A DNA stretch of 64,000 bases from Desulfobulbaceae bacterium (GCA_026987195.1 JALSNC010000301.1:1-64000), one strand, 5' to 3'. Positions 4,502 to 62,353 are shown, counted from the stretch's first letter. Program-made: numbers and translations. The notes: generated by a model not told the origin, from the letters alone.

Positions 4502-4549
4502 ATTCGAGAATCTTCGTGTTGCCTGCTGCGGATGATGAGCTGTTTTTTT

Positions 4550-4707
4550 GTAAGCGCTCACAGGCAGCGCATCTTTGCACGGTCGCGTTTGTCAGCATAG
4601 AGGGGCTATAGCGAACAAACGCGCCTGCACAAATATTGCACTACCTGTGAACGCTTACAGCTCTGAGGTTGTGAAACCGCATAGTTGCCAACCCTGTGAG
4701 GGGTTTC
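4550..4707. mobile_element. Type I palindromic MITE (158 bp), copy 1
   Basis: The element begins GTAAGCGCTCACAGG and ends CCTGTGAGGGGTTTC, imperfect terminal inverted repeats. It is flanked by GTTTTTTT (4542-4549) and GTTTCTTT (4708-4715), a 7/8 match as expected of an aged 8-bp target duplication. The interior is a long palindrome with arms CGCGTTTGT and ACAAACGCG. It ends directly before the stop codon region of the TauE/SafE gene. Confidence 0.8.
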
Positions 4708-4715
4708 GTTTCTTT

Positions 4716-5501
4716 TCAGTTCAGCGAGGAGAGGGCTGTCAGGCCGATCCTGAGTGCGGCCAGGCCGATACAGACAGCCAGGATGATCCGCAGGGTGTCC
4801 ACCCTGACCCTTCTGCTCAGGCTGGCGCCGAGATAGGCCGCCGGCAGGACCGTGGCCACGATGGGCAGGGTGAGGGGCCAGTCGATCTGGGCGGTCAACG
4901 CCTTGCCGAGCAAGGCGGCAAGGGTGGAGAGGAAGACAATGGCCAGGTTGCTGCCAATGGCGATGCGGGTCGGGACCTTTACAAACACCGTCATGAGGGG
5001 GATGAGGATGAAGGATCCGCCCTGGCCCACCAGGCCACTGAAGAAGCCCACCACCACGGAGACCGCCAATGCCCGCAACCTGTTGAAGGAAAAGTGCGCC
5101 AGGTCCGGATATTCGGCCTCTTTCCTCTTCGGCAGCGCGATCAGGACCGCGGCCACGAAGGCCATGATCGCAAAGACCAGCAGCAGGTGGCTGTTGTCGA
5201 TGTGACCGGCGCTGGCCCCGCCGATGAAGGACGACGCGAACAGGGTGATGCCCATCCACAGGACCAGGGACGGCGAGAGAAAGTGGTGCCTGGTATGGGT
5301 GAGGCCGCCGGAGATGCAGGCGGCCAGTCCCTGGACAATGGTCAGTCCGGCAACCGTCTGCATGGGCAGCGGCGCACACCCGAACAGGGGCGGGACATAG
5401 AGCAGGAGCGGTGCCATGATGATGCCGCCCCCGATCCCCAGCAGCCCGGACAGAAAGCCGGTAACGACACCCAGCAGGCCGACGATGAAAAAGAGCGGCA
5501 T
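4716..5501 (-). CDS. TauE/SafE (TSUP) family membrane permease
   Basis: The 261-residue protein is almost entirely hydrophobic, with about eight membrane segments and the family's two Gly-rich repeats: GFLSGLLGIGGGIIMAPLL near the N-terminus and GFFSGLVGQGGSFILIPLM in the second half. TSUP proteins move small sulfur or organic anions such as sulfite, sulfoacetate or taurine. It follows selD by a single base, so the two are almost certainly one operon. That context suggests a selenium or sulfur oxyanion as substrate; this is inference. A type I MITE abuts its 3' end. Confidence 0.88.
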   Translation of the reverse strand: MPLFFIVGLLGVVTGFLSGLLGIGGGIIMAPLLLYVPPLFGCAPLPMQTVAGLTIVQGLAACISGGLTHTRHHFLSPSLVLWMGITLFASSFIGGASAGHIDNSHLLLVFAIMAFVAAVLIALPKRKEAEYPDLAHFSFNRLRALAVSVVVGFFSGLVGQGGSFILIPLMTVFVKVPTRIAIGSNLAIVFLSTLAALLGKALTAQIDWPLTLPIVATVLPAAYLGASLSRRVRVDTLRIILAVCIGLAALRIGLTALSSLN

Positions 5502-5502
5502 C

Positions 5503-6555
5503 CTAGATCACGGTCAGGCCCACTGTCTCGTCGGTGATGTCGCCGATCTTCACCGCTGTCGTGACGCCGGCCCCGTGAAGCCTTCGGACCAGCTCCGCCG
5601 CCTGACTCTCCGGAACAGCCAGCACCAGGCCGCCCGAGGTCTGCGGGTCGTAGAGCAGTTCCTCTTCCACGCTGTCGAGGTCACGCCGGATCTCCAGCCG
5701 GTGCCGAGCCACCATCTCCCGGTTGGCCCTGTTGCTGCCCGTGGTTTCCCCCTTGCGGTACATGGTCTCGGCATGGGGATAGAAGGGCAGTCGCGCATAC
5801 TCCACCATCACCCGGGCATCGCAGCCGTGGGCCACCTCGAGCAGGTGCCCCAGGATGCCGAACCCGGTGACGTCGGTGCAGGCATGGAGCTCGAAGTCCA
5901 GAGCCGTCTCCATGGCCGGGCCGTTCAGGGCCGCGAGCATGGGCAGGACATCGCGTTCCAGGTCGGCGAAGGCGAGCTTGCCGGAACGGACCGCGTTGAA
6001 GAGCACGCCCGAGCCCAGGGGCTTGGTCAGGATCAGGGCATCGCCGGGACGGGCACCGGCATTGGTGATGATCCGCTCCGGGTGGACCGTGCCGTTGACA
6101 CAGAGGCCGTACTTGGGTTCCTCGTCATCCACGGTATGGCCACCCACCAGGCAGGCCCCGGCCTCCACCACCTTGTCGTGGCCGCCCCGCAGGATATCCT
6201 TCAGCAGGCCCATGTCCAGCTGTTTTGATGGAAACATCACCACGTTGAGGGCTGTCAGCGGCCTGCCGCCCATGGAGTAGACATCCGAGATCGAGTTGGC
6301 CGCCGAGATCTGGCCGAACCAGTAGGGATCGTCCACCGGCGGGGTGATGAAATCCACGGTGCTGATCATGGCGATCTCGTCCGTGAGCCGGTAGACCGCC
6401 GCATCATCAGCCGTCTCGATACCGACCAGCAGGTTGGGGTCGGCCGGCGCCGGCAGGCCTTCGAGCGCGTCCGACAGAGCCGTCGGACCGATCTTCGCGG
6501 CTCAGCCGCAGGTGCGGGCCAGGCTGGTCAGTGTTTTTTTTCTGAATATCCGCAT
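5503..6555 (-). CDS. selD: Selenide, water dikinase, itself a selenoprotein (in-frame TGA = Sec18)
   Basis: SelD makes selenophosphate from selenide and ATP, the selenium donor for selenocysteine and selenouridine. A naive reading starts at 6369, but the same frame continues upstream through one TGA (6502-6504) to ATG at 6555. This adds an N-terminus containing TCG-U-AAKIGP and ADPNLLVGIETADDAAVY, both standard SelD blocks, and the full 350 residues. The TGA sits where other SelD proteins carry catalytic Cys or Sec. Downstream blocks include VDFITPPVDDPYWFGQISA, GGRPLTALNVV and GGHTVDDEEP. A hairpin directly after the TGA fits a bacterial SECIS. A GAAGGG ribosome site precedes ATG 6555. Confidence 0.95.
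6469..6488 (-). promoter_or_regulatory. Candidate SECIS hairpin of selD
   Basis: On the coding strand, 13 bases after the TGA, GTCCGAC and GTCGGAC form a perfect 7-bp stem around the six-base loop GGCTCT. The distance from TGA to loop (about 20 bases) and the G-rich start of the loop fit bacterial SECIS elements recognised by SelB. Confidence 0.7.
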
Positions 6556-6709
6556 GGAGCCCTTCTCGTTATAAGTTATTTCTATCAATTTTTATCAATT
6601 CATATTATATTCTTATAACAGGGCCACGGTGTGGCTGTCAAGGAGGAAAAGGCCGACAGGAGGCCCTGGCCAATGCTACGCAACCGGGACAGGAAGGATA
6701 TGGGATGGA
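6556..6709. promoter_or_regulatory. AT-rich control region between selD and the LysR gene
   Basis: The stretch 6565-6620 is very AT-rich compared with the surroundings. It holds inverted copies of GTTATAAG (6568-6575) and CTTATAAC (6612-6619), and two direct copies of TATCAATT ten bases apart (6583-6590, 6593-6600). Such symmetric and phased sites suit LysR binding. A TATAAT-like box on the minus strand falls here and could serve selD. Nothing coding is seen. Confidence 0.5.
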
Positions 6710-6891
6710 GTAACAGTTCAGCAGCACGCCATCTGCATGCCCTTGCGACTGCCCGCATAGCGGGCTGTCGGCGTCTCGCTGCGCTCGCTTGCCTGTCGGC
6801 CGGTCACGATCAGGCACAACTGAGGCACTGCTGAACTTTTATCAAAACCACCGGCAATTCAATGGGCTTGCCGATATCTGTAAGCTGTCAC
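6710..6891. mobile_element. Type II MITE (182 bp) directly upstream of the LysR gene
   Basis: It starts GTAACAGTTCAGCAGCACGCC and ends in a degenerate AAGCTGTCAC, with internal CTGCTGAACTTTTAT. The flanks GGGATGGA and TGTATGGA agree at 6 of 8 positions, a weak target duplication. The element stops 3 bases before the LysR start codon. Confidence 0.6.
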
Positions 6892-6894
6892 TGT

Positions 6895-7818: not shown

Positions 7819-7833
7819 GCAGAGAATAAAAAC

Positions 7834-8049
7834 GTAACCCCTCACGGGGTGACTAACCATCGGTTTTTCCGGGCACAGTGGTGTAAGCGCTCCCAGGGGC
7901 CGCAGATTCGGAGTCTACGCTTACCTGTGCAGGCGTGCCTGACCGCAGGTAAGCGAGCGCAGCGAGACTCCGATAGCCTACCTATGCGGGCAGGCACGAC
8001 CGTGCAAAGAGGTAAGCGAAGACTCCGTGCGGTTCCTGTGAGCGCTTAC
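7834..8049. mobile_element. Type I MITE (216 bp, expanded), copy 2
   Basis: It begins GTAACCCCTCACGGG and ends CTGTGAGCGCTTAC, the reverse orientation to copy 1. It carries about 60 bp extra compared with the 157-bp form (GAGTCTACGCTTACC-like segments). The flanks are A-rich and match at 6 of 8 bases, which is not informative. Confidence 0.7.
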
Positions 8050-8055
8050 AAAAAA

Positions 8056-8092: not shown

Positions 8093-8111
8093 ACCGGATC
8101 ACAGAATGATA

Positions 8112-9813: not shown

Positions 9814-11190
9814 CTATTGCAGAGCGACCAGAATCGGGATCAACCCCTGACCGGAGGACAAGGGCTCAAGGGCCTTGCCGATGATTGTTCCCAGGGAGCG
9901 GGCACCATCGGTTGCCTTCATTGCATGGCCGGCGGTGGGCGAGCTGGTAAGCAGGTCTCCGACCCTGATCGATCCGTAGTCTCCGTCCACCTTGCAGTAT
10001 ACCTTTCCGTTCAGGGCAATGGGGCGCCTGCTGCTCCCGGCCTCCTGCCGGTCGAGTATGATCCCCGGCCGGTACCCGCCGGCACCGGAAACGACACCCG
10101 CCACCCGCCTGTCATACCCCTCTGAACAGGGACAAAGGCTGCCACTGTCATCAAGGACCATCACCGTTCCCGGCTCGACCTCGTCGGCCAGATTGGCGGC
10201 AATGTCGAATTCTTCGGCACAGTCGGCATTTTTCAGGATAATGTCACCAGCCTGACCGTCCAGGTGGATGGACGCCTGGCTCAAGTCATGGATGTCCGTT
10301 GCGCCGGAGGGAAAGAGAATGATATCGCCGTCTGTACCGTGCCCGCCGAACCAGGCGTTGCCACCGCCGGCATCCAGGTGAATGGTCGCCTGCTTCAGGT
10401 CGTGAATGTTGCTTACTCCGGAAGGAAAGAGAACGATATCACCATCGGTTCCGTGCCCGCCGAACCAGGCGTTACCACCGCCGGCATCCAGGTGAATGGT
10501 TGCCTGCTTCACGTCATGGAGATTGGTCGCCCCGTCGGGGAAAAGGACAATGTCCCCGTCAGCACCATGTCCGCCGAACCAGGCATTGCCGCCGCCGGCG
10601 TCCAGGTGGATACGGTTTCTGCCATCGTTGTCCTTGAGATAGATGTCACCATCAGCACCGTTGCCGCCGGCGACAATATCGCCATTGTTGCCCGTGAGGC
10701 GGATCCGGTCCTGGGACGTGCTGTTTTTCAGCCTGATCGTCCCGTTGGCACCGTTTCCCCCGAATGTCCCGGAGCCGCTGGTGCCGTCAAAGCTGATATG
10801 GTCTCGTGAACTTTCATCCCTGATAAAGATATCCCCGTCAACGCCCTGTCCGCCGACATAGATGTTGCCGCTGCCGGCATCGAGAATGATCCGGTTATGG
10901 CCCTCTGCTCCGCGGAGGCGGAGATCGCCGTCCTGGCCTGCCCCGCCCATGTTGATGTCGCCATGTGCGCTGATCGTCATCACCAGGCCGCCCTCGGCCG
11001 AATAGATGCGGATAACACCCGAATTCGCATCCAGGCTGATCCGGGTGGCCCCCGCTGCATCCCGCAGCCTGATGTCGCCGTCTTCGCCGGCACCTCCCGC
11101 AACAAGATCGCCGGTGTCACCGTTGATCGTAATGGTTATTGCCGAATCAGCCGCCTTGCCGACAGTGAATGGTCCTGTGTGATCAGCCAT
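9814..11190 (-). CDS. Gly/Asp-rich beta-repeat protein with a tail-associated-type C-terminal domain
   Basis: MADHTGPF at 11190 is preferred over an upstream TTG because AGGAGG lies just before it. Residues about 10-320 are a chain of degenerate 30-38-residue repeats of the form GxGxDGDIxLxD...RIxLDAxxGN, predicted to build a beta-solenoid. Three units of exactly 38 residues (IHLDAGGGNAWFGGHG...) are nearly identical. The C-terminal 100 residues (GKVYCKVDGDYGSIRVGDLL, TSSPTAGHAMKATD, GTIIGKALEPL) form a conserved domain that I recognise from phage-tail-like and surface proteins but cannot name. No signal peptide. First gene of a three-gene operon. Confidence 0.8.
   Translation of the reverse strand: MADHTGPFTVGKAADSAITITINGDTGDLVAGGAGEDGDIRLRDAAGATRISLDANSGVIRIYSAEGGLVMTISAHGDINMGGAGQDGDLRLRGAEGHNRIILDAGSGNIYVGGQGVDGDIFIRDESSRDHISFDGTSGSGTFGGNGANGTIRLKNSTSQDRIRLTGNNGDIVAGGNGADGDIYLKDNDGRNRIHLDAGGGNAWFGGHGADGDIVLFPDGATNLHDVKQATIHLDAGGGNAWFGGHGTDGDIVLFPSGVSNIHDLKQATIHLDAGGGNAWFGGHGTDGDIILFPSGATDIHDLSQASIHLDGQAGDIILKNADCAEEFDIAANLADEVEPGTVMVLDDSGSLCPCSEGYDRRVAGVVSGAGGYRPGIILDRQEAGSSRRPIALNGKVYCKVDGDYGSIRVGDLLTSSPTAGHAMKATDGARSLGTIIGKALEPLSSGQGLIPILVALQ
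10261..10602. repeat. Tandem repeat, three units of 114 bp
   Basis: Units start at 10261, 10375 and 10489 with CAGGTGRATGG, and a fourth partial start lies at 10603. Each unit encodes 38 residues of the beta-repeat protein, so copy number can change without a frameshift. Confidence 0.9.
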
Positions 11191-15404: not shown

Positions 15405-17555
15405 CTATGGCCGCCATACGGCCCGGGGCAGGTGGAGGGTGAAGACCACGCCCTGCCGTCCCTTGTCCAGGTCGGCCACGGTCACCGTGCCGCCGTGGTG
15501 ATCGAGGATGGTACGGACGATGTAGAGGCCCAGGCCCAGGTGGGGGCGGTCGTCTCCGGCCGGGCGGAGGGAGACCATGGAGTCGAAGATCCGTGCCTGC
15601 AGGGCAGGTGGTATGGTGTTTCCCTGGTTGCTGACCTGCAGCAGAACCTGCCGGCGTCCGGACCGGACCTCTAGTTCGACCGGTGTGCCCGGCCGGTGAA
15701 AGGAGACCGCGTTTTCCACCAGTTTTTCCGTTGCCTGGCGCAGGCGGACCGGGTCTCCCTTGACCGGGAGCGGTCCGTCGGGCACCGTGCAGCGGAATTC
15801 AACCCCGGTAAAGGTTTGTTGCCAGCCGTGTTGCAGCCACATGGGCAGAGCGCGGCCCAGGTCGAAGATCTCCATGGACTCCTGCTGCAGGGCCTCCCTG
15901 AGCGAAGTCGCCTCCCGGATGGAGGTGAGCAGTCCTTCCAGCCGTCGCACATCGTTGCGCGCCCAGTCGAGGTAGTTCCTGATCCGGGGTGACGGCTCTT
16001 CCAGTTCCTGTTCCAGGTTGTTCAGCGATGCGGACACCGCGGCCAGCGGGGTGCGCATCTCGTGTTCCAGGTTGTCGGCCATCCTCTCCCGGTGCTCCAC
16101 CTGCTGTTCGAGCTGGCTGAGCATGGAGCGCAGGGTCCCGGCCAGGTCGCCTATCTCGTCCCTGGCCCTGGTGCCGATACTGGCGCTGCGGATATGGCCG
16201 TCCGGAGAAATGGCTGCCGCGGCCTGGTCGCGCAGGCGCCGGATCCTGGCCGAGATGCGGGAGGCGAACAGCAGCAGGCCGCCACCGCCGAGCAGAAAGG
16301 CCAGGAGCGACAGGGAGACGGTCTCCTCGATCAGGCGGTTGCTCAAGGCGAGGATGGAGTTTGTCGTCTGTTCCACGACCACGGCGCCGACGATTTTTTT
16401 CTTTTCGTACAGGGGCGTGATCGCGGCCATGACCTCCACCTGCCCTTTGGCGAGCAGGTAGCGGGTGATTGAACTGCGGCCTTCAGCCAGGGCCTCGCCG
16501 ATGCCCTGCAGGTCCAGTTCCGTGGGCTGGGATGTCTGGTCGACGATGTCGGCGCTGAAAGAGGTGGTGAAGAAACGGAACAGGGGGCGGAGCAGGTCGT
16601 GGATGCGGGTCATGATCCGGGCCGAGAGTTCCTGCGAGGAGGCGAGCGGATCGCGGGCCTCGCGCAGGCCCCCCACCTGGGCCCGGATCCGCTGGTTGCG
16701 GTCCACGATCCGGATGCGGGCATAGGGGCGGTCCAGGGATCTGAGGATCTCCTCGATGGCCGTGGAGGTGGTCAGCAGCCAGCCGGGCTCCCGGTCCTGT
16801 GCCAGGTTGGCGGTGCCGATCAGGGTCGTGACCAGGCGCGTTTTCGGATCGTCCACGTCGGCGATGGTAAAGGCCAGCCGGCTGCCGAGCAGGTCCAGGG
16901 GGATCCGAAACTCGAGGATGTAGCCCTGGCCGGTCTGACGCCAGACCCCCTGGATGCGCGGCTCCGGAACCGGGAAAAGGCCCGGTTCGTCCGGCATCCG
17001 GAATCCGTTGACCCAGCCAGGTGCATGGGCGGTGATGATGTAGCTGCGCCTGCCGCCTTCATCCTCGATAATGATCCGCAGGTGGTCGGACCGGTCCAGG
17101 CGCAGGGATTTTCGGCTTCGATAGACCACGCGGTCGTCCCGGACCTCGAACAGGGAGTAGAGATGCCCTCCCTGCCGGCCGGAGAGGTGGCGGAAGGAGA
17201 GGGTGTCTGGATGGTAGCGGTTGCGCGGACTGAGCAGGTGCTCCCTGCCGAATTCCTCGGCCTGGGCCAGCTCGGGCTGCCAGTCACCGGTTCTGCCGTC
17301 GAGGCGGATGGTGTTGGAGAGGTGAAAGATGTAGAGATCACGGGCCTGGTCCAGGGCATGGAACCGTTCCCGGGCAAAGAGGTCGCTGCGGTTGGCCAGG
17401 GCAGCCGAGACCGCCTGCGCGGTCAGGGCCAGGGTATCCTGCTGGCTGGTGAGCAGGCTCTGCTTGAGGATGGAGTTGAGGCGGATTCCGAGCAGGGGAA
17501 AGAGGAGCAGGAACAGGGAGACCAGGGCCAGCTTGAATCGCAGGGAGACGCGCAT
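15405..17555 (-). CDS. pdsS: Sensor histidine kinase of the proteobacterial dedicated sortase system
   Basis: From MRVSLRFKLALVSLF the protein has about 716 residues: a first membrane segment, a large periplasmic sensor region (about 40-400), a second membrane segment (TVSLSLLAFLLGGGGLLLF), HAMP, a HisKA box (HEMRTPLA) and an HATPase domain (N box KLVENAVSF, G box HLGLGLYIV). Length, sensor region and position beside a regulator, a VIT/VWA target and a class GN sortase match the kinase of the dedicated sortase system. The longer frame starting at 17588 translates a repeat (MPIAVNYYL) and is not preferred. It lies downstream of the response regulator. Confidence 0.87.
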   Translation of the reverse strand: MRVSLRFKLALVSLFLLLFPLLGIRLNSILKQSLLTSQQDTLALTAQAVSAALANRSDLFARERFHALDQARDLYIFHLSNTIRLDGRTGDWQPELAQAEEFGREHLLSPRNRYHPDTLSFRHLSGRQGGHLYSLFEVRDDRVVYRSRKSLRLDRSDHLRIIIEDEGGRRSYIITAHAPGWVNGFRMPDEPGLFPVPEPRIQGVWRQTGQGYILEFRIPLDLLGSRLAFTIADVDDPKTRLVTTLIGTANLAQDREPGWLLTTSTAIEEILRSLDRPYARIRIVDRNQRIRAQVGGLREARDPLASSQELSARIMTRIHDLLRPLFRFFTTSFSADIVDQTSQPTELDLQGIGEALAEGRSSITRYLLAKGQVEVMAAITPLYEKKKIVGAVVVEQTTNSILALSNRLIEETVSLSLLAFLLGGGGLLLFASRISARIRRLRDQAAAAISPDGHIRSASIGTRARDEIGDLAGTLRSMLSQLEQQVEHRERMADNLEHEMRTPLAAVSASLNNLEQELEEPSPRIRNYLDWARNDVRRLEGLLTSIREATSLREALQQESMEIFDLGRALPMWLQHGWQQTFTGVEFRCTVPDGPLPVKGDPVRLRQATEKLVENAVSFHRPGTPVELEVRSGRRQVLLQVSNQGNTIPPALQARIFDSMVSLRPAGDDRPHLGLGLYIVRTILDHHGGTVTVADLDKGRQGVVFTLHLPRAVWRP

Positions 17556-17564
17556 GAGGTTCAG

Positions 17565-17620
17565 GTAATAGTTCACCGCTATGGGCAACCACCTGAAAAG
17601 ACCGACTCTTTTGGCAAAAG
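17565..17620. repeat. Type II MITE left half between regulator and kinase genes
   Basis: GTAATAGTTCACCGCTATGGGCAAC, then CTTTTGGCAAAAGTTCAG. It fills the spacer inside the two-component operon and ends at the regulator's stop codon. Confidence 0.65.
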
Positions 17621-18502: not shown

Positions 18503-18762
18503 GCTGCTCCTGCCGGCGGCAGTTCTTTCCGGCGCGGCCGGCGACCGGCAGCTACCTCTGATCTGTTCCCGATCTGTACCATAGAAAACAGGTTTGGGCC
18601 AGTTCCGGCTCCTGTTTGTCATCTTCTGTCATTTTTTCTTTCCCTTCTGTCATCATCCCGGACACGGCCGGTCATCGTCGGAGTCTACAGTGAGCGGCAA
18701 CCGCTGGAACGGGCGGAAAAAGAAAAATATCCATGTCTGCGCCGGTGCGCAAGGAGGGGAAG

Positions 18763-20826
18763 ATGAGGTGGAAACGTTCTGTGGACCCCGGAGTGGTGCT
18801 GGTTACGCTGTACCTGGCCCTGGTGCTGCTGTTCCTGCTGCTTGGGGGGGCAGGGGCGGCAGGTGCCGCGGTCGATCCCGGGGCGGTTCGTCCGGAGACC
18901 GTTCGCCGGGGCGCCCTGCTGGTGGCCGGAGACGGGCCGGAGAGTTTTTCGCCGGTGCCCATGCTGGAGATGGACGTGGACATCACCGTCACCGGGATCG
19001 TTGCCCGGACCCGGGTCAGGCAGCGGTTCAGAAACGATTCCTCCATCTGGTTCGAGGCCCTGTACGTTTTTCCCCTGCCCGAAGAGAGCAGCGTCGATCA
19101 CATGCGCCTGCGGGTGGGTGATCGGATCATCACCGGCAGGATCCGGGAGAAGGAGGCGGCACGCCGCATCTACGAGGCGGCCCGGCAGGACGGGAAAAGG
19201 GCCTCCCTGCTTGCCCGGCAGCGGCCCAACATCTTTTCCGTTGCAGTGGCCAATGTGGGCCCGGGCGAGACGGTGACCGTGGAGATCGAGTACCAGCAGG
19301 TGGTGGCGCGGCAGGGAAAGAGCTTTTCCCTCCGTTTTCCCATGGTGGTGGGCCCCAGGTACATGCCCGCAGGCCCGGAGACCGGTGGTCCGGGCCCGTC
19401 GGACGCAGCCTTTCCGGCAGTCGGCGTCACAGGCCTGATCCAGCCGCCGGTAGTGGCGCCGGGCGGAGCGGTCGTCAACCCGGTGCGCCTGCACGTCAGC
19501 CTGGCGCCGGGTTTTGGCGTGGGCCGGGTCGAGTCTCTCTACCACGGCATCACCACGGAGCGTAAAAACGGCCTCATCGACATCCGTTTCAACGGCAGGG
19601 TGGCTGCAGACCGCGATTTCGTCCTCGAATGGGAACCGGAACAGGGCCGGGTACCTGGTGCGAGCCTGTTCGCCGAGCACCGGGGCGGCGAGACCTTTCT
19701 CCTGCTCATGCTCACCCCGCCTGCCACGCCGCTCCGTGAGCCGCTGGCCCGGGAGACGATCTTTGTTCTCGACAACTCCGGTTCCATGGCAGGGTCCTCC
19801 ATCCGCCAGGCCAGGGCGGCCCTGCGGTATGGTGTGGCCATGATGCGGCCCCGGGACCGGTTCAACATCATCACCTTCGAGAGCGTCACCCGTTCGCTCT
19901 TTGCCTCCAGCCGGCCGGGAACACGGAAAAATCTTCTGGCCGCGGACCGCTTCATCGACACGATCCGGGCCCGGGGCGGCACCGAGATCCGTCCGGCCCT
20001 GGCGCTGGCCCTGGATGGCCGCAGCGATCATGCCCGCCTGCGGCAGGTGGTCCTGCTTACCGACGCCTGCGTGGGCAACGACGATGAGCTGCTGTCCCTG
20101 GTTGCCTCCCGCCTGGGGGATACGCGCCTGTTCACGGTCAGCATCGGTTCGGCGCCCAATACCTCCTTCATGGCCAGGGCTGCGACCATGGGCCGGGGCG
20201 CCCATACCTTCATCGGCAAACCGGACGAGGTGAGGGAGCGGATGAGTGGCCTGTTCGCCATGCTCGGCCAGCCGGCGGTGACACACCTGCGGCTCAGCGG
20301 CGACGCCATGGCCGAAACCCTGCCCGCTCCGCTGCCCGATCTCTATCACGGCCAGGTCCTGACCGCTCTTGTCAGGATGCGGGGCGAGGCGGGGAGGCTC
20401 AGGCTCAGTGGCCTGCTGCCGGACAGAACGCCCTGGCAGGTGGATCTGGACAGCAGCCGGTTCGGTGACCGGCCCGGCATCGCCGTGCTCTGGGCCAGGA
20501 AAAAGATGAACAGCCTGATGGAGGGACTGGTCTCCGGTGCCGACCCGGACCAGGTGCGCCGGGCCGTGGTCCGCCTGGCCCTGGCCAACCACCTGGTCAG
20601 CCGTTACACCAGTCTGGTGGCGGTGGAAGAACAACCGGCCCGGCCGGTGGACAGGACACTCCGGACCCATCGCCAGCAGGTCAACCTGCCGGCGGGATGG
20701 CAGTATGGCATGGTCTTTGCCGGCTCCGCTGCCACGGCCACGGCCTGGCCCCTGCTCCTGAGCACGGGATTCCTGCTCCTTGCGGTCGCGGCCCTGGCGG
20801 CCTTCCTGCGCCGGAGGCCGGAATGA
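18763..20826 (+). CDS. Sortase target protein with VIT and von Willebrand A domains
   Basis: ATG 18763 follows AAGGAGGGG by 3 bases and is preferred to 18733. The 687-residue protein has a signal segment (VVLVTLYLALVLLFLLLG), a VIT domain (about 45-170, VRQRFRNDSSIWFEALYVFP), a VWA domain (about 325-500) with MIDAS motif DNSGSMAGSS, and a C-terminal tail with one membrane helix followed by RRRPE. This is the plan of the single target of the proteobacterial dedicated sortase. In the usual place of the LPxTG-like motif it reads AGSAATATAWPLLL, so the sorting signal looks degenerate. The sortase gene overlaps its stop. Confidence 0.9.
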   Translation: MRWKRSVDPGVVLVTLYLALVLLFLLLGGAGAAGAAVDPGAVRPETVRRGALLVAGDGPESFSPVPMLEMDVDITVTGIVARTRVRQRFRNDSSIWFEALYVFPLPEESSVDHMRLRVGDRIITGRIREKEAARRIYEAARQDGKRASLLARQRPNIFSVAVANVGPGETVTVEIEYQQVVARQGKSFSLRFPMVVGPRYMPAGPETGGPGPSDAAFPAVGVTGLIQPPVVAPGGAVVNPVRLHVSLAPGFGVGRVESLYHGITTERKNGLIDIRFNGRVAADRDFVLEWEPEQGRVPGASLFAEHRGGETFLLLMLTPPATPLREPLARETIFVLDNSGSMAGSSIRQARAALRYGVAMMRPRDRFNIITFESVTRSLFASSRPGTRKNLLAADRFIDTIRARGGTEIRPALALALDGRSDHARLRQVVLLTDACVGNDDELLSLVASRLGDTRLFTVSIGSAPNTSFMARAATMGRGAHTFIGKPDEVRERMSGLFAMLGQPAVTHLRLSGDAMAETLPAPLPDLYHGQVLTALVRMRGEAGRLRLSGLLPDRTPWQVDLDSSRFGDRPGIAVLWARKKMNSLMEGLVSGADPDQVRRAVVRLALANHLVSRYTSLVAVEEQPARPVDRTLRTHRQQVNLPAGWQYGMVFAGSAATATAWPLLLSTGFLLLAVAALAAFLRRRPE

Positions 20827-22097: not shown

Positions 22098-22412
22098 GTC
22101 AACGTTCAGCAGTGCGTCAGCTGTGCGTGATCGTGACCGGCCGTCAGGTAAGCGAGCGCAGCGAGACCCCGATAGCCGTAACCCCTCACAGGGTTGACAA
22201 CTATGCGGCTTCACAACCGCAGATCTGTAAACGTTCACGGGTAGTGCATATTTGTGCAGGCGCGTTTGGTCGCTATAGCCTCTCTATGCGGACAAGCGTG
22301 ACCGTGCAGAGATACGCCGCCTGTGAGCGATTACCGATAGCCCGCCATGCGGGCAGTCGCGGGTACGGGCAGGTAAGCGTGGACCCCGGGTGACGTGCTG
22401 CTGAACTTTTAC
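22098..22412. mobile_element. Type II MITE split by an inserted type I MITE
   Basis: The left part has GTTCAGCAGTGCGTCAGCTG, the right part ends GTGCTGCTGAACTTTTAC. They are the two halves of one palindromic type II element, interrupted by the element at 22178-22334. Confidence 0.8.
22178..22334. mobile_element. Type I MITE (157 bp) nested in a type II MITE
   Basis: It starts GTAACCCCTCACAGGG and ends CCTGTGAGCGATTAC. The 8 bases CGATAGCC occur directly before (22170-22177) and directly after (22335-22342): an exact target duplication. Confidence 0.92.
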
Positions 22413-23424: not shown

Positions 23425-23475
23425 GTAACAGTTCACCGCCATCGGCAACCGTGTTGAATTGGCAGTGATCTTTTC
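23425..23475. repeat. Type II MITE fragment
   Basis: Starts GTAACAGTTCACCGCCATCGG, ten bases after the radical SAM stop codon; the right end is degenerate. Confidence 0.6.
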
Positions 23476-23490
23476 CCGGCGGAGCACGGA

Positions 23491-27610: not shown

Positions 27611-27671
27611 GTAACCCCTCACGGGATAACCAACCATCGGTTTTCTCGACCACAATCCTGTGGGCGCTTAC
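27611..27671. mobile_element. Minimal type I MITE (61 bp) with exact duplication
   Basis: GTAACCCCTCACGGG to CCTGTGGGCGCTTAC, with the central hairpin of longer copies missing. TGCATGCC stands at 27603-27610 and again at 27672-27679. The remaining spacer to 28015 is AT-rich around 27765-27815 and probably contains the promoter of the DUF5335 gene. Confidence 0.9.
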
Positions 27672-32236: not shown

Positions 32237-32435
32237 GTAGAAGTTCAGCAGCACGCCATCCGGGGTCTTCGCTTGCCTGCACGCGCTCGCGGCTGACCGC
32301 ATAGGTAGTCTATCGGAGTCTCCCTGCGGTCGCTTACCCGCGGTCAGGCACGCCTGCACAAATCTGCGGCCCCTGAGAGCGCTTGCACCATTGTGGTCGG
32401 ACAAACCGATGTGTAGCCATCCCGTGAGGGGGTAC
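32237..32435. mobile_element. Chimeric MITE (type II left, type I right)
   Basis: From GTAGAAGTTCAGCAGCACGCC to CCCGTGAGGGGGTAC, with CCTGAGAGCGCTTGC inside. No duplication flanks it. The spacer downstream (32436-32625) holds the porin promoter region, with no other structure seen. Confidence 0.65.
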
Positions 32436-32625
32436 CACCGGTTAGGGTGAACCGGGATGGCGGCCGGACCCTCTGCCGCCGATCTCCCGTTCCCTCTGTT
32501 CCGTCGATCGGTGCGCCGGTTGAGATAATTTTTCTGTGTTCCATCTGTTTTTGCGGATTACGCGTTGTATGAGCCTCTGGGCGCCAGGTGTTCTGATGCC
32601 CGCAAACAGCAACAAGGGAGATGGT

Positions 32626-36173: not shown

Positions 36174-36329
36174 GTAAGCGGTCACAGGCACCACATCTTC
36201 GCACGGTCGCTCCTGCCCGCATAGTAGGCTATAGCGGCCAGGAGCGACCATGCGAACCTGCGGCACCTGAGACCGCTTACAAAAACGAGGTTGATAAACC
36301 GTGACCTCGCATACCCTGTGATCAGTTAC
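36174..36329. mobile_element. Type I MITE (156 bp), best-preserved copy
   Basis: It starts GTAAGCGGTCACAGG and ends CCTGTGATCAGTTAC. GTCGGGCC stands at 36166-36173 and 36330-36337, an exact duplication. The inner hairpin arms GGTCGCTCCTG and CAGGAGCGACC pair perfectly, and the whole 107-bp left part is nearly palindromic. Confidence 0.95.
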
Positions 36330-37037: not shown

Positions 37038-37261
37038 GTAAGCGCGTAAGCGCTTACGGGGACCGTACGGAGTCTTCGCTTACCTCTTTGCACGGTCGCG
37101 CCTGCCCGCATGGATAGGCTATCGGAGTCTCCCTGCGGTCGCTTGCCTGCGGTCAGGCACGCCTGCACAGGTAAGCGTAGACTCCGAATCTGCGGCCCCT
37201 GAGAGCGCTTACCGCATTGTGGTCGAAAAAACCGATCGTTGGTTATTCCGTGAGGGGTTAC
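37038..37261. mobile_element. Type I MITE (224 bp, expanded) with near-exact duplication
   Basis: From GTAAGCGCGTAAGCGCTTAC to TCCGTGAGGGGTTAC. The flanks are GTGTGTCC (37030-37037) and GTGTGGCC (37262-37269), 7/8. Extra segments (GGAGTCTTCGCTTACC type) double the stem compared with the 157-bp form. Confidence 0.85.
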
Positions 37262-37300
37262 GTGTGGCCTGTCGGCAACATTTTTGCAATACAGGGAATT

Positions 37301-40274: not shown

Positions 40275-40321
40275 GTAATAGTTCACCGCCGTCGGCAATG
40301 GTCTGAAAATAGAACTTTTAC
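40275..40321. mobile_element. Minimal type II MITE (47 bp)
   Basis: GTAATAGTTCACCGCCGTCGG to AGAACTTTTAC. The flanks TGCAAGCC (40267-40274) and AGCAAGCC (40322-40329) match at 7 of 8. It sits in the divergent spacer between the glycosyltransferase and the CLC gene. Confidence 0.8.
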
Positions 40322-42356: not shown

Positions 42357-42467
42357 CGCAAGCGGTCACAGGGACCGCATCTTTGCTTGGTCGCTCCTGT
42401 CCGCTTAGTAGGCTAGGGCGGCCAGTCACGATCACGCACAGCTGACGCACTGCTGAACTGTTAGGAT
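42357..42467. mobile_element. Chimeric MITE (type I left, type II right)
   Basis: It opens GCAAGCGGTCACAGG (degenerate type I) directly after the CLC stop codon and closes GACGCACTGCTGAACTGTTAG (type II). Flanks show no duplication. Confidence 0.65.
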
Positions 42468-43805: not shown

Positions 43806-45575
43806 ATGGAAACCATACCCCTTCTCTCCCGTTACCTGCCCGCTGTCGGCTGGCTGCGCACCTACCGGCGCAAGTGGCTTCGTGCCGATATCCTGGGTGG
43901 CATCACGGTCTGGGCGGTCCTCATCCCCGAGGCCATGGCCTATGCCGGCATTGCCGGCGTGCCGCCGCTGATGGGGCTCTACACCGTGCCGCTGCCGCTG
44001 TTCTTCTATGCCCTGCTGGGCAGCTCCAGACTGCTGGTGGTGGGACCCGACTCGGCCACCGCCCTGCTCTCTGCCGGCATTGTCGGCTCCATGGCCCTGC
44101 AGGGTGGAGACCGTTTTCTGGTCCTGACCTCGGCCCTGGCCATCACCGTGGGCGTTCTTTTCCTCCTCTTCGGTATCTTCCGTCTGGGCTGGCTGGCCAA
44201 CCTGGTCTCCCGGCCGGTGATGAGCGGTTTCCTCCAGGGGATCGTCCTGGTGACCATCCTCGGCCAGCTCCCCGGTCTGATCGGCATCGACCCGGGGACG
44301 GGGCTCTTCTTTCACCGCCTGGCCGCCTGTGTCCGGGCCCTGCCAGGCGCGCATCCTCTGACCCTGGCCCTGGGAGGCGGCAGCCTTGTCCTGCTCCTGG
44401 TCCTGCACCGGAAACTGCCCCGACTGCCCTCGGCCATGATCACCGTCATCGTCATGACCCTGGTCTCCACCATCTTTGATCTCGGCAGCAGGGGAGTGGC
44501 TGTCACCGGTGCCCTGGCCACCTCGCTGCCGCCGCTCTCCTTTCCCGCCATCAGCCCTGCCGAGTATCTCGACCTGGTGCCCGGGGCCCTGACCATTGCC
44601 CTGCTGGGCTATATCGAGTCCCTGGGTGCGGCCGAGGTCTCGTCCCTGAAGAGCGGCCGGGATGTGGACCCGGACCAGGAGCTGATCGCCCTGGGAGTCT
44701 GTAATCTCGGCGCCGGCATGTCGTCGGGTTTCGTTGCCGTAGGCAGTCTGTCCAAGACCTCGGTGGCCGCGGTCTGCGGTGTCAGGAGCCAGGTGGCCTT
44801 CCTGATCAGCGGCCTGCTCTCCCTGCTGACCCTGCTCTTCCTCCTGCCCCTTCTCGCCAACCTGCCCCACGCCACCCTTGCCGCCATCGTCATCGAGGCC
44901 ATGTTGGGCCTGGACCAGAGCGCGGCCATCAGGCAGCAGTTCCGGTTCAGTTGGCTGGAAGGCACACTGGCCCTGGTCTCCCTGTTCGGCGTGCTCTATT
45001 TCGGCGTGGTCGAGGGGGTGGTGGCCGGAGTCATCCTCTCCATCGTCATTCTCCTGGAACGGGCCAGCCATCCGGGCACGGCCGTGCTCGGCAGGATTCC
45101 GGGACATGCCGTCTACCGGGACGTCCGGCGCCATCCCGAGGCTATCACCGTTCCCGGCCTGCTGATCTTCCGGTTCGACTCCGAACTGGTCTTTCCCAGT
45201 GCCCGGTTCTTTCTCCACCAGGCCATGCGGGAGCTGAAGCAGGCCCGTGGTCCGGTCCAGGTCTTCCTCATCAACGCGGAGACCATCAACGATCTGGACC
45301 TGACCGGCGCCCGGGCCCTGTTGCGGCTGGAGGAGAAACTGCACCGCAAGGGGGTCAGGCTGTGGGTGGCGCAGATGCAGGACCCGGTCATTGACAAGCT
45401 GCGCCGGCTGGAGGGCGGGGAGAAACTGGCGGACGGTCACCTCTATGAATCGGTGGGTGACGGTGTGCGCGCCTTTCACCAGTTCATGAGGCGCAAACCG
45501 GCCCGCGACAGGGAACAGAGAGTGCAGGCCGATTCCGCTGATCCGGCACCCACGGCCGGGGGACGGCATTGGTAA
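43806..45575 (+). CDS. SulP-family anion transporter with STAS domain
   Basis: The 589-residue protein shows ITVWAVLIPEAMAYAGIAGVP (SulP signature), many hydrophobic helices to residue about 420, and a cytoplasmic STAS domain at 440-560 (LLIFRFDSELVFPSARFFL, NDLDLTGARALLRLEE). SulP carriers take up sulfate or other anions, here plausibly sulfate or bicarbonate. The last codons are odd: a MITE inserted into the stop codon (TG/A) so that TGG-TAA now ends the gene, adding one Trp to the C-terminus. Confidence 0.93.
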   Translation: METIPLLSRYLPAVGWLRTYRRKWLRADILGGITVWAVLIPEAMAYAGIAGVPPLMGLYTVPLPLFFYALLGSSRLLVVGPDSATALLSAGIVGSMALQGGDRFLVLTSALAITVGVLFLLFGIFRLGWLANLVSRPVMSGFLQGIVLVTILGQLPGLIGIDPGTGLFFHRLAACVRALPGAHPLTLALGGGSLVLLLVLHRKLPRLPSAMITVIVMTLVSTIFDLGSRGVAVTGALATSLPPLSFPAISPAEYLDLVPGALTIALLGYIESLGAAEVSSLKSGRDVDPDQELIALGVCNLGAGMSSGFVAVGSLSKTSVAAVCGVRSQVAFLISGLLSLLTLLFLLPLLANLPHATLAAIVIEAMLGLDQSAAIRQQFRFSWLEGTLALVSLFGVLYFGVVEGVVAGVILSIVILLERASHPGTAVLGRIPGHAVYRDVRRHPEAITVPGLLIFRFDSELVFPSARFFLHQAMRELKQARGPVQVFLINAETINDLDLTGARALLRLEEKLHRKGVRLWVAQMQDPVIDKLRRLEGGEKLADGHLYESVGDGVRAFHQFMRRKPARDREQRVQADSADPAPTAGGRHW

Positions 45576-45728
45576 TCGTTCACCGCTATCGGCAACTACC
45601 TGAAAATAACGACACCTTTGGTAAAAGTTCAGCAGTGCGTCAGCTGTGCGTGATCGTGGCTGGCCGTCTACAGTACGCTATGCGGCCAGCCGCGAGCGCG
45701 TGCAGATGGCGTGCTGCTGAACATTTAC
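45572..45728. mobile_element. Type II MITE (157 bp) inserted into the SulP stop codon
   Basis: It begins GTAATCGTTCACCGCTATCGG and ends GCTGCTGAACATTTAC. CGGCATTG lies at 45564-45571 and 45729-45736, an exact duplication. Removing element and one copy restores the reading CGG-CAT-TGA. Confidence 0.95.
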
Positions 45729-49265: not shown

Positions 49266-49421
49266 GTAACTGATTACAGGGTATGCAAGGTCACGATTTC
49301 TCAACCACATTTTTGTAAGCGGTTTCAGGTGCAGCAGGTTCGTGCGGTCGCTCCTGGCCGCTATAGCCTGCTATGCGGGCATGAGCGACCGTGCGAAGAT
49401 GCGGTACCTGTGACCGCTTAT
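49266..49421. mobile_element. Type I MITE (156 bp) with exact duplication
   Basis: GTAACTGATTACAGGG to CCTGTGACCGCTTAT, the reverse orientation of the copy at 36174. CCTTGTCA occurs at 49258-49265 and 49422-49429. It stands 5 bases past the cardiolipin synthase stop codon, which lies in the duplication. Confidence 0.95.
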
Positions 49422-57432: not shown

Positions 57433-57444
57433 GAAGGAGGTGTG

Positions 57445-59171: not shown

Positions 59172-59242
59172 AACAGTGGCCGGGTACCGTTCAGCCGCTC
59201 CTGCCGGCAGAAGTTGATGTGCCTTGGCTGACAGGAGTTCAC

Positions 59243-59593
59243 ATGCTGCGACATCGGAACCTGTACCTACCTCTTGCTCTTTTTCTCTTCTTTTTCTTTT
59301 TTCCCTGCCAGGCCTTTTCCTGGACCGACATTACACAGCTTGGCGCCGGTGGCGGCGCCAAGGAGGTGGCCGTCAACCGGGATGTCTCAAAGGTCCGGTT
59401 CATCTGCAGGAATGCGCCGGTGATCATCAACACCGTGGTCATGCGCGAGGGCGGCAAAAAGACACCCTTTACCATGGGCAAAAGGTTCGCTGTAGATGAA
59501 GAGTTTGTCCTCGATCTTGGCGGCAGGCACCACGTCACCGGCCTGCGCATCAGCGACGACCTGAAGGGCAGCTACCTGGTCCAGGTGGAATAG
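59243..59593 (+). CDS. Secreted beta-rich protein, unknown function
   Basis: ATG 59243 (ACAGGAG eight bases upstream) begins a signal peptide MLRHRNLYLPLALFLFFFFF ending near QAFS. The mature ~90-residue protein is beta-rich (VAVNRDVSKVRFICRNAPVI, RHHVTGLRISDDLKGSYLVQ). The upstream ATG 59168, overlapping the roadblock gene, is possible but lacks a signal-peptide start. It is in the roadblock operon, so the cytoplasmic pair and this exported protein may belong together. Not recognised. Confidence 0.7.
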   Translation: MLRHRNLYLPLALFLFFFFFPCQAFSWTDITQLGAGGGAKEVAVNRDVSKVRFICRNAPVIINTVVMREGGKKTPFTMGKRFAVDEEFVLDLGGRHHVTGLRISDDLKGSYLVQVE

Positions 59594-59633
59594 CTGAGGC
59601 TGCGGAATCTGCCAGACTTTCGCTCCCCGTTTT

Positions 59634-59733
59634 GTAACAGTTTGCCGCTATCGACAGCTATTTTGGAATGCCGGTGTTTTTGCAAAAAAATCGCTGTCGT
59701 TCCATGTGGCTGCCCATGGAGGTGAACTGTTGC
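59634..59733. mobile_element. Type II-like MITE (about 100 bp)
   Basis: From GTAACAGTTTGCCGCTATCG to GAGGTGAACTGTTGC, inverted repeats of type II left-end type on both sides. No duplication visible. Confidence 0.6.
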
Positions 59734-59767
59734 CTGCTCTTGAGTTCTTCCTCACTGATAAGGAAAA

Positions 59768-61753
59768 ATGACTACATCGATGATAGACCGGCTGCGCGCC
59801 TTGTCGCCCGAGGAGCGCCCTGTGCTGCTCCGGGAGACCTACGAGAGCAATATTGCCTTTTTTCGGCAGCATTATCCACACTTGCTGGCATTGATACAGC
59901 AACAGAAATGCCCTTATCAACTGAACGTTACATCTGAATTTCTCTCTATCACCCATGAGAAAACCGGGGAGCTTGCCCATCCGAAGGCCGGTCTTGATCT
60001 GTTTGCGGCAATGATGGGAGACTGGGTGCACGACACCTGGATAGATCTCTGTAACTTCAAGGTCCCGGCCATGGACCTGTATCCGCTCCATGGTGAGCCG
60101 CTGCGAAATCTGTACCGTGAACTGCTGATGGAGTTTCCGGAAACACTGATCAGGTTTTCCAACAAGGAGGTCAACCTGAAAGAACTGCCGGATGGCAGAC
60201 GATTCTCGCCACCAGTGATTTTTCTTGGCATTTTTCACGGGCTCCATATCGACTACTATCTTTCCAGAACCGAGGTCTCGCATATTCTGCTGGTCGAGCC
60301 GGATACGCAACGATTTGAGGTGTCCTGCTATTTTCTCGATTATCGCCAGATTACCAACGGGTCCGATGTCGTTTTTTCGCTGGGACCTGACCCTCAGTCT
60401 GAAGCCATCCGTCTATTTTTCAGCAATTATCATATCAGCCGTTCCTTGTGGGCTCGGGTTTTGCCCGCCTATGAACATGAGGCTGCCCCCCACATGATTG
60501 AATCGTTCAGGATGCACCAGGTGACCATGTCGAATGTGGTGTTTCCTCTGGATAGAGATTATGACGCTCTACGTCAGGCCGATGTGAATCTCAGGCAGAA
60601 ACGCCTGCTCCTCACGTCCCGGCCACGTTTGTCACCAGGATCGAGGATTGCGGTTGTTGCCTCCGGCCCGTCCCTTGATCAGGATATCGATTGGTTGAGG
60701 GAAAATCAGGACAGACTCATCATTCTTGCTGTCTTCAGTGCGGTCAAGCCATTGCTTCGCCAGGGTATTCGGCCCGATTTCCAGGTCACCATGGAGACGG
60801 TTCTGCATGAGGAAGGTTTGCGGAATCCCCTGGGGCTGGATCCGGACATACCGGTGATCGCCGGCTGCAACGCGCCGGCTTCGATCGTACGGTATTTCAA
60901 GAAACTCTTTTTGTGCGGTATTGGCGACAAGGTCGCTCCGGTACGTTTTTCCCTGCCTCTCCACAGGGTGCTTCCCTCCAGCACGAGCATGGCCTTTTCT
61001 TTTGCCAGCTTGTGCGCACCGGCTGAGATCTTTCTCGCTGGTTGCGATTTCGGGTATCTGTCCACTGGACATACTCATGCCGGAAACACTATTTATGACC
61101 GGAATCCCAGCGAGAAGGATGATGTTGTCGTTTCGGACTACCTGGACAAGATGCAGCAGATCGTGGTCGAGGCAAATTTCAAGAGTTCAGAGCGGCAGTT
61201 TGTGACCAGCACGCCGTTTCTGAGCCATGTGCGGATTGTTGTCGAACAATCCATTGCTCGGATGCCGAGAACAAAGATATACAATCTCTCTGACGGTGCC
61301 CGTGTCCGGGGAGCGAAGCCAAAACGATCAGGAACCATCAAACTTAAAAAATATGCCGGAAAAGCAGATGATGTACACCGCATCTGCGAGTCCTTCAGGC
61401 CCGCTGAAAAAGGACTCAACTGGAAGCCGTACAAGAAAAAGTCCAGCGATCTGGTCCAGGATTTCAAGAAGGATGTCCTTCGGGGGCTTTCTTTGGATGA
61501 GTTTTCCTGGAAGGAATTTAATCTGTCAGTGGATCGGGCGGTGTTTGATGCACTTGCAGCCCATAGAGAAAACGATCTGGACCGAAGGCCGGAGGTCTTT
61601 GTTCTTTTTATTCTCCACCTGCTGACCGCCTGGTATAAAGTCGCGCTTTTCAGCGATCATGTGGAGCAGACGGAAGAGATCCATAAGGCAGGGCTTGAAA
61701 AGTTGGAAACCATCTTCAAGCAGCTGTCCTGGCCGGTCAAGGACTCGGTTTAG
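59768..61753 (+). CDS. Maf-type flagellin glycosyltransferase (DUF115 core)
   Basis: The 661-residue protein has a central DUF115/MptE-like domain (RIAVVASGPSLDQDIDWLRE, GIRPDFQVTMETVLHEEG, ILAVFSAVKPLL) with GPS nucleotide-sugar site, as in motility-associated factor (Maf) proteins that add nonulosonic acids to flagellin. AAGGA precedes ATG 59768. AT content is higher here than in the rest of the window, hinting at a different history. It ends one base before a type I MITE; fliT-like, fliS and fliD follow on the opposite strand. Confidence 0.88.
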   Translation: MTTSMIDRLRALSPEERPVLLRETYESNIAFFRQHYPHLLALIQQQKCPYQLNVTSEFLSITHEKTGELAHPKAGLDLFAAMMGDWVHDTWIDLCNFKVPAMDLYPLHGEPLRNLYRELLMEFPETLIRFSNKEVNLKELPDGRRFSPPVIFLGIFHGLHIDYYLSRTEVSHILLVEPDTQRFEVSCYFLDYRQITNGSDVVFSLGPDPQSEAIRLFFSNYHISRSLWARVLPAYEHEAAPHMIESFRMHQVTMSNVVFPLDRDYDALRQADVNLRQKRLLLTSRPRLSPGSRIAVVASGPSLDQDIDWLRENQDRLIILAVFSAVKPLLRQGIRPDFQVTMETVLHEEGLRNPLGLDPDIPVIAGCNAPASIVRYFKKLFLCGIGDKVAPVRFSLPLHRVLPSSTSMAFSFASLCAPAEIFLAGCDFGYLSTGHTHAGNTIYDRNPSEKDDVVVSDYLDKMQQIVVEANFKSSERQFVTSTPFLSHVRIVVEQSIARMPRTKIYNLSDGARVRGAKPKRSGTIKLKKYAGKADDVHRICESFRPAEKGLNWKPYKKKSSDLVQDFKKDVLRGLSLDEFSWKEFNLSVDRAVFDALAAHRENDLDRRPEVFVLFILHLLTAWYKVALFSDHVEQTEEIHKAGLEKLETIFKQLSWPVKDSV

Positions 61754-61754
61754 T

Positions 61755-61936
61755 GTAAGCGCTCACAGGAGCCGCATCTTTGCACGGTCGTGCCTGCCCG
61801 CATAGGTAGGCTATCGGAGTCTCGCTGCGCTCGCTTACCTGCGACCAAGCACGCCTGCACAAATGTGCGGCCCCTGAGAGCGCTTACACCATTGTGGTCG
61901 GACAAACCGATGGTGAGCCATCCCGTGAGGGGGTAC
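61755..61936. mobile_element. Type I MITE (182 bp) at the end of the Maf gene
   Basis: From GTAAGCGCTCACAGGAGCCG to CCCGTGAGGGGGTAC. Flanks GGTTTAGT (61747-61754, containing the stop codon) and GATTTAGT (61937-61944) match at 7 of 8. Confidence 0.88.
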
Positions 61937-61939
61937 GAT

Positions 61940-62353
61940 TTAGTTTGTCGTGTCGATATGGCGGCCCAGACCATCGGCCGGTGTCTGATATCCCTGCATG
62001 GTGGATATGCCGTTTTTGATTTGCAGAAGCTCGGTGCGGTAGCCTGTGAGCCTGGTTTGGAGCTTGGGCAGAACTCTTTTGTTTTGCGCCACAAGTTCAG
62101 CCAGTATGGCTCGTTGTTCTTCCAGAAGCCCGACCGGCATGGTTCGCTTTTTGTCCCCGGCAGTATCGATTGTCTGGAGGAGTTCCAGGTCCGTAGTCTC
62201 TATCTGGTGATGCAATCTGTGGAGATTTTCCACGGCCAGGAGAGTTTGTGCCAGGTCGAGGGAAGAAAGTTGCTCTTCCAGGCAATCCATGGTTGTCTTG
62301 AGCTCCCGATAGAGTTTCGTGGATGCTTCAAACTTTTTTTTCACGGTCATCAT
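61940..62353 (-). CDS. FliT-like flagellar export chaperone candidate
   Basis: From MMTVKKKFEASTKLYRELKT (ATG 62353) the protein has 137 residues, almost fully helical, with no membrane segment (ELLQTIDTAGDKKRTMPVGL, LEEQRAILAELVAQNKRVLP). Size, helical character and position directly downstream of fliS and fliD fit a FliT- or FlgN-type chaperone for flagellar cap or hook proteins. Sequence alone does not distinguish them. The right duplication of the MITE overlaps its 3' end. Confidence 0.7.
   Translation of the reverse strand: MMTVKKKFEASTKLYRELKTTMDCLEEQLSSLDLAQTLLAVENLHRLHHQIETTDLELLQTIDTAGDKKRTMPVGLLEEQRAILAELVAQNKRVLPKLQTRLTGYRTELLQIKNGISTMQGYQTPADGLGRHIDTTN

What the first reader, a model, noticed from the sequence alone, without database searches (positions are those of the whole stretch)
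4542..61944. A population of 156-224 bp palindromic MITEs with GTAA ends and 8-bp target duplications
Eight type I copies start or end with GTAAGCGCTCACAGG-like inverted repeats. Exact 8-bp flanking repeats are visible at 22178-22334 (CGATAGCC), 27611-27671 (TGCATGCC), 36174-36329 (GTCGGGCC) and 49266-49421 (CCTTGTCA). 7/8 matches flank 4550-4707, 37038-37261 and 61755-61936. Terminal GTAA with 8-bp duplications is what I know for the IS66 family, so these look like IS66-mobilised non-autonomous elements. No IS66 gene is in the window. About one copy of any type per 4-5 kb is unusually dense for bacteria.
Basis: partly seen in the sequence, partly recalled or inferred. Interest (0 to 1): 0.85.

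Follow-up and report, generated by a model that had tools for sequence, protein, structure and literature searches.

The report
IS66-driven hairpin MITEs, two types
This bacterial genome is peppered with hundreds of tiny jumping DNA pieces that carry no genes, use the ends of a known transposon family (IS66, ISBst12 group) to move, and share a hairpin kept on one strand across related genera, so they may be more than passive DNA junk.

Summary
Type I copies have GTAA ends and 8-bp target duplications: 35 of 58 typed ends in the home genome have an exact duplication and 42 of 58 at most one mismatch, against 5 of 580 control positions. Three copies (one in the window) sit inside another repeat whose intact copies show the empty site. 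Other copies are empty in two sister genomes.

The IS66 call is supported and sharpened. Canonical IS66 tnpABC elements of this taxonomic family have other terminal repeats. The matching ends (GTAAnnnnTCACAGGG, 8-bp duplication) belong to ISBst12-group, single-transposase IS66 elements: 1,546 bp, or about 2.35 kb with an extra DruA-domain gene. The home genome keeps only an IS66 relic.

A second set of repeats in the window (type II, GTAAnnGTTCA ends) is the same kind of element, with ends like those of a sister ISBst12 clade.

Beyond the finding: every full element is a 49-bp arm plus a 108-bp hairpin. The hairpin is conserved across the order with compensatory changes in 28 of 42 pairs, shared by both types, and more stable on one strand in all 40 type I copies tested. 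The autonomous type I elements lack it. This suggests a structured RNA (or single-stranded DNA) module carried on borrowed transposon ends.

The parts
4550..4707 (-). Type I MITE a (core 4550-4658)
   Evidence: CM R1 105.8 bits on - strand, 54.5 on +; T-rich near-matching flanks, weak TSD
7834..8049 (+). Type I MITE h, 216 bp, with paired 17-bp inserts in both arms and a loop insert
   Evidence: TSD not clear
22178..22334 (+). Type I MITE b, exact TSD CGATAGCC, inserted inside a type II element
   Evidence: RNA fold -68.3 kcal/mol, z -5.1
27611..27671 (+). 61-bp minimal type I derivative (left arm joined to right end, hairpin lost), exact TSD TGCATGCC
36174..36329 (-). Type I MITE d (CTGATCACAGGG subfamily), exact TSD GTCGGGCC; element absent in sister genomes G001 and G002 (flanks diverged)
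   Evidence: 108.2 bits
37038..37261 (-). Type I MITE e, 7/8 TSD, paired 17-bp inserts, terminal 8-bp duplication GTAAGCGC; element absent in G001 and G002
   Evidence: orientation from the L end at 37261
49266..49421 (+). Type I MITE f, exact TSD CCTTGTCA
61755..61936 (-). Type I MITE g, 182 bp with loop insert, 7/8 TSD
45572..45728 (+). Type II MITE (49-bp arm plus 108-bp core 45621-45728), exact TSD CGGCATTG
   Evidence: 76.6 bits with a model built only from type I
40275..40321 (+). 47-bp minimal type II element, 7/8 TSD; precise empty site in G001 and G002
23425..23476 (+). 52-bp minimal type II element, 7/8 TSD, degenerate right end
6710..6842 (-). Type II MITE core
   Evidence: 29.3 bits
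18371..18502 (-). Type II-like core, partly mosaic
   Evidence: 29.8 bits
22104..22412 (.). Type II element interrupted by MITE b
   Evidence: alignment of joined flanks with uninterrupted copies
32251..32436 (-). Mosaic type II/type I element
   Evidence: (19.9 bits)
42358..42464 (-). Mosaic type I/type II core
   Evidence: (23.4 bits)

Best explanation
These are non-autonomous transposons (MITEs) moved in trans by IS66-family transposases of the ISBst12 group.

Anatomy (shown): left terminal repeat L; a 49-bp arm; an internal repeat I that starts a 108-bp near-palindrome; and the right terminal repeat R, which is the complement of I.

Mechanism (inferred): the transposase binds L and R, joins the element to a staggered 8-bp target, and gap repair makes the TSD. 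The hairpin is not needed for movement, since 47-61 bp copies without it have TSDs (shown; movement before loss of the hairpin is possible but less simple). Type I ends (GTAAnnnnTCACRGG) match one ISBst12 clade; type II ends (GTAAnnGTTCASC) resemble a sister clade.

The 108-bp hairpin is a shared module, not a piece of the known autonomous elements. It was probably kept by selection for folding of one strand, as RNA or as single-stranded DNA (inferred from covariation and strand asymmetry).
For: TSDs: type I 42/58 ends with at most 1 mismatch and 35 exact, control 5/580; type II 18/36, control 2/360.

Nested insertions: type I copies b, L021 and L029 lie inside type II copies, each with an exact 8-bp repeat, and uninterrupted type II copies show the site before insertion.

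Empty sites in sister genomes: type II 40275-40321 is precise in both; type I copies at L028 and L003 are spanned by contiguous alignments and L024 by a near-contiguous one.

Partner: intact 1,546-bp elements in G076/G081 with perfect inverted repeats GTAACTAATCACAGGGT and exact TSDs; 2,371-bp elements in G064 (GTAACCGATCAGGGG); G066 and G039 copies with GTAATTGGTCACGGGGT and GTAACTGATCACAGGGT. The proteins score above cut-off for PF03050 and NF033517.

Type II partner: the IS66 relic in the home genome lies beside GTAATAGTTCACCG and is closest to G040's transposase (1.5e-28), whose end is GTAACCGTTCACCAGG.

ISDge4 of the ISBst12 group has GTAACTGCTCAGCA ends and an 8-bp repeat (PMC12898284).

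Hairpin: 28/42 pairs with compensatory change, 0/500 shuffles; type I model finds type II at E 1e-18 to 1e-21; sense RNA fold more stable in 22/22 and 18/18 copies; G-U to A-C cells 93:12, while transitions in the left arm are symmetric.
Against: No intact matching transposase is in the home assembly (316 contigs, 95% complete); it could be lost, unassembled or binned away. Similarity between MITEs and the autonomous elements is limited to the terminal repeats, and no transposition was observed. The type II partner rests on one relic and one distant relative whose two ends were not both recovered. The co-occurrence test of matching transposase and end motif is partly circular, because each IS contributes its own ends. 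The hairpin argument cannot separate RNA from single-stranded DNA, copies are related by descent, and no promoter or insertion-orientation bias was found.
Confidence: 0.88

Rival explanations
1. The MITEs are moved by canonical IS66 tnpABC elements of this family of bacteria.
For: Same GTAA start and 8-bp TSD; canonical ends have GTAAGCGC then CCnCATCTT, and MITE right ends have GTAAGCGC then CCGCATCTTTG one base further in.
Against: The diagnostic TCACAGG/TCACGGG block is absent from every canonical end recovered and present in the ISBst12-like clade. The G012 genome has dozens of MITEs and a complete canonical IS66 with non-matching ends.
Confidence: 0.06
2. They are ordinary REP/BIME-like or ERIC-like repeats that spread without an IS66 transposase.
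For: Short, palindromic, intergenic in 29 of 29 typed copies by a simple home-made gene caller, very numerous.
Against: Exact 8-bp TSDs, nested insertions and empty sites show transposon-type insertion; the ends equal those of intact IS66-family elements.
Confidence: 0.03
3. On the hairpin only (compatible with the best explanation for movement): it is a by-product whose arms stay complementary because quasi-palindromes are corrected by template switching, with no selected RNA.
For: Paired 17-bp inserts appear in both arms of the 7832-8049 and 37046-37263 hairpins, as arm-to-arm correction would give.
Against: Arm correction acts on duplex DNA and predicts no G-U over A-C bias and no strand preference, yet both are strong. 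Tandem U-G/G-U pairs and a G-A/A-G mismatch recur at the same positions across genera.
Confidence: 0.35

Closest known systems
IS66 family, ISBst12 group (for example ISDge4)
   Same: GTAAnnnnTCA terminal repeats, 8-bp TSD, one IS66 transposase (PMC12898284; elements)
   Different: The window elements are 47-224 bp without genes. The larger partner elements also carry a DruA-domain gene.
Correia/NEMIS and ERIC elements
   Same: About 100-200 bp, transcripts predicted as long stem-loops; ERIC effects depend on orientation (PMC2229807)
   Different: Not the same family by anything tested here; in this case the partner transposase family is identified and one hairpin is shared by two end types.
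Chunjie MITE of Geobacter uraniireducens
   Same: Dispersed intergenic MITE, 178-235 bp, with conserved TIRs and direct repeats (PMC10969869)
Canonical IS66 tnpABC elements
   Same: GTAA start, 8-bp TSD
   Different: Inner terminal repeat differs.

Membership tests
MITE (miniature inverted-repeat transposable element) | Short, no transposase gene, terminal inverted repeats | tested here: met
   47-224 bp, GTAA..TTAC ends
MITE (miniature inverted-repeat transposable element) | Target-site duplication and empty site | tested here: met
MITE (miniature inverted-repeat transposable element) | Ends shared with an autonomous element | tested here: met
   Type I ends equal ISBst12-like IS66 ends in relatives; type II by one relic and one relative
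MITE (miniature inverted-repeat transposable element) | Interior derived from the autonomous element by deletion (not required by all definitions) | tested here: not met
   No hairpin in the type I-clade ISBst12-like elements searched with the model
IS66 family (as mobilising system) | 5'-GTAA terminal repeats and 8-bp TSD | tested here: met
IS66 family (as mobilising system) | PF03050 / NF033517 transposase on the partner | tested here: met
IS66 family (as mobilising system) | tnpA and tnpB genes beside tnpC (canonical group) | tested here: not met
   Partners have one transposase ORF, or DruA plus transposase, as in the ISBst12 group
IS66 family (as mobilising system) | Transposase actually moves the MITE | not testable with these tools
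   Needs a mobilisation or binding assay
Known structured RNA (Rfam) | Match above gathering score | tested here: not met
   Only a tRNA in the window; no hit near gathering score for one element

The most novel reading that the evidence does not exclude
The 108-bp hairpin is a conserved, strand-specific RNA (or single-stranded DNA) module kept across an order of bacteria. It spreads by wearing the terminal repeats of at least two different ISBst12-group transposases, rather than being a deleted copy of either.
Probability: 0.45. Interest if true: 0.75.

Novelty: new variant of a known kind. Interest (0 to 1): 0.58.

Why it matters
It pairs a very abundant bacterial MITE group with a defined transposase subgroup; no IS66-linked MITE turned up in the library searches made here. 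It also gives a test case for why bacterial MITEs so often form hairpins: here the transposon ends can be separated from the hairpin, hairpin-less copies carry target duplications too, and the hairpin looks selected on one strand across genera. That makes a selfish-only reading and a cargo or host-function reading directly testable.

Tried and rejected
Plasmid collection: no match. Viral contigs: no match. The genome contigs pattern scan gave only two named records, both Desulfobulbus/Desulfobulbaceae. Canonical IS66 as partner was rejected on terminal-repeat sequence. Presence/absence association of matching transposase with the end motif (12 of 13 against 20 of 61, p about 1e-4) was set aside as partly circular. 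One apparent core next to G040's transposase raised the idea that the hairpin is part of the autonomous element; reading the sequence shows it is better explained as a MITE inserted into the gene start. Insertion orientation relative to neighbouring genes showed no clear bias. Strand-biased mutation as the cause of the G-U excess is not supported, because left-arm transitions are symmetric.

Full report
OBSERVATION. Four copies have exact 8-bp flanks, two more match at 7 of 8, and the 4550 copy is weak. Scanning all 256 four-base ends in the window without assuming GTAA, the GTAA..TTAC pair gave the most elements of 40-400 bp flanked by identical 8-mers, 4 against a mean of 0.06.

GENOME SCALE. 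The home assembly is 3.8 Mb in 316 contigs. A first BLAST with a 157-bp copy gave 40 matches, and most full copies show exact 8-bp duplications. The exact type I end occurs 291 times against 1 for the reversed control; the exact type II end 135 times against 0. Elements carry up to three such ends, many with changes. Scaling from the window (11 and 7 exact ends) suggests a few hundred elements; this is an extrapolation. The window is about 2.5 times denser than average.

TSD STATISTICS. Over own-genome loci and the window, 42 of 58 type I ends have a duplication with at most one mismatch and 35 are exact, with 5 of 580 control positions passing. For type II it is 18 of 36 and 2 of 360. The two ends of one element are counted separately. 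No clear target motif was seen.

EMPTY SITES. The window's 20.5-40.5 kb is collinear with contigs of two other species of the genus, mostly at 78-88% identity. The 47-bp type II element at 40275 has a precise empty site in both. Elements d and e are absent from both, though the flanks have diverged. Joined flanks of type I copies L003 and L028 align contiguously across the insertion point in sister genomes; L024 does so with an indel near the junction. Three type I copies (b, L021, L029) are inserted inside type II elements with exact 8-bp repeats; uninterrupted type II copies show the pre-insertion sequence.

PARTNER TRANSPOSASE. The home genome has one IS66 fragment (C110). In 74 genomes of the same taxonomic family, PF03050 elements fall into several clades. 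Canonical tnpABC elements end in GTAAGCGC-n8-CCnCATCTT. A separate ISBst12-like clade has the MITE end: 1,546-bp elements with perfect GTAACTAATCACAGGGT repeats and exact TSDs in G076 and G081; 2,371-bp elements with GTAACCGATCAGGGG in G064; a G066 copy with GTAATTGGTCACGGGGT; a G039 copy with GTAACTGATCACAGGGT. The proteins pass the PF03050 and NF033517 cut-offs. The larger versions carry an upstream ORF with a DruA domain, PF14236, E 5e-37 and 2e-35. A published ISBst12-group element, ISDge4, has GTAACTGCTCAGCA ends and an 8-bp repeat (PMC12898284), which fits the general pattern GTAAnnnnTCA. Assignment to the ISBst12 group rests on the single transposase ORF and this end pattern; no ISfinder reference sequence was available for a direct comparison.

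TYPE II. The C110 relic lies beside GTAATAGTTCACCG, the type II end. Its closest transposase in the set is G040's (1.5e-28), with end GTAACCGTTCACCAGG. In the tree G040, a G075 element and the type I clade form one group (support 0.987). So two end types appear to track two related transposase lineages; the type II side rests on thin data.

DISTRIBUTION. Elements with the same bipartite build, many with TSDs, occur in 20 of 37 genomes searched (own genome included), in several families of the order. The exact L-end motif occurs in 38 of 74 genomes of the taxonomic family with near-zero reversed controls. Named records with the core are Desulfobulbus/Desulfobulbaceae, so the host is probably in Desulfobulbales; this is inferred, not shown.

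THE HAIRPIN. Full type I and type II elements share a 49-bp arm plus 108-bp core build. On a gapless alignment of 15 type I cores from several genera, 95.2% of pair cells are standard pairs, 28 of 42 pairs have compensatory change, and no shuffle of 500 matches any measure. A covariance model built only from type I finds type II cores at E 1e-18 to 1e-21, and in the window the type II core 45621-45728 at 3e-19; the sense strand scores about 34 bits above the antisense on average. Without any model, predicted RNA folding is more stable on the sense strand in 22 of 22 own copies, 18 of 18 others and 5 of 5 type II. Among pairs whose consensus is Watson-Crick, departures are G-U in 93 cells and A-C in 12; by column 25 against 9, p about 0.009. 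Left-arm transitions are symmetric, so strand-biased mutation is not an obvious cause. Copies share descent, so these counts are not independent events. DNA parameters also favour the sense strand, so RNA and single-stranded DNA are not separated. The autonomous type I partners lack the hairpin, and hairpin-less 47-61 bp copies have TSDs, so the hairpin is neither IS-derived on present evidence nor evidently required for movement.

MECHANISM. Shown: transposon-type insertion with 8-bp TSD, matching ends on intact IS66-family elements, the two-module build, and hairpin conservation. Inferred: trans mobilisation by ISBst12-group transposase, and a selected role of the folded strand. Not tested: transposition, transcription, and any host effect.

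NOVELTY. MITEs, IS66/ISBst12 and hairpin-forming MITEs are all known. The new points are this family, its assignment to the ISBst12 group, the shared strand-specific hairpin under two end types, and a DruA-domain gene inside ISBst12-like elements. A library search for DruA with transposase or DUF4338 found one unrelated defence paper; the library lacks most subscription journals, so absence there is weak evidence.

Noticed in passing
L153:511-1389, L163:406-1278, L162:3803-4678: ORF upstream of the ISBst12-like transposase, inside the element, with a DruA (PF14236) domain in the two copies scanned (L153, L163), the domain of an anti-phage Druantia protein. PADLOC gives only a weak hit. The L162 ORF looks like the same protein but was not scanned.
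   Followed up: partly
window 7909-7925, 8011-8027, 37068-37084, 37170-37186: A 17-bp insert (GGTAAGCGnAGACTCCG) sits in both arms of two hairpins so that the inserts pair with each other; related copies occur elsewhere in the window (7 matches, 0.02 expected).
   Followed up: partly
G069 and G085 (whole genomes): 285 and 202 exact type I ends in 1.3 and 2.6 Mb, denser than the home genome.
   Followed up: no
window 10259-10611: Three tandem copies of a 114-bp unit within an ORF region.
   Followed up: no
window 15405-17588 and 18733-20826: A histidine kinase resembling the proteobacterial dedicated sortase-system kinase (below its cut-off) and a marine sortase target protein (above cut-off).
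   Followed up: no
L144:33-141: A MITE core directly before the transposase reading frame of G040's ISBst12-like element, apparently a MITE inserted into the gene start of its own likely helper.
   Followed up: partly
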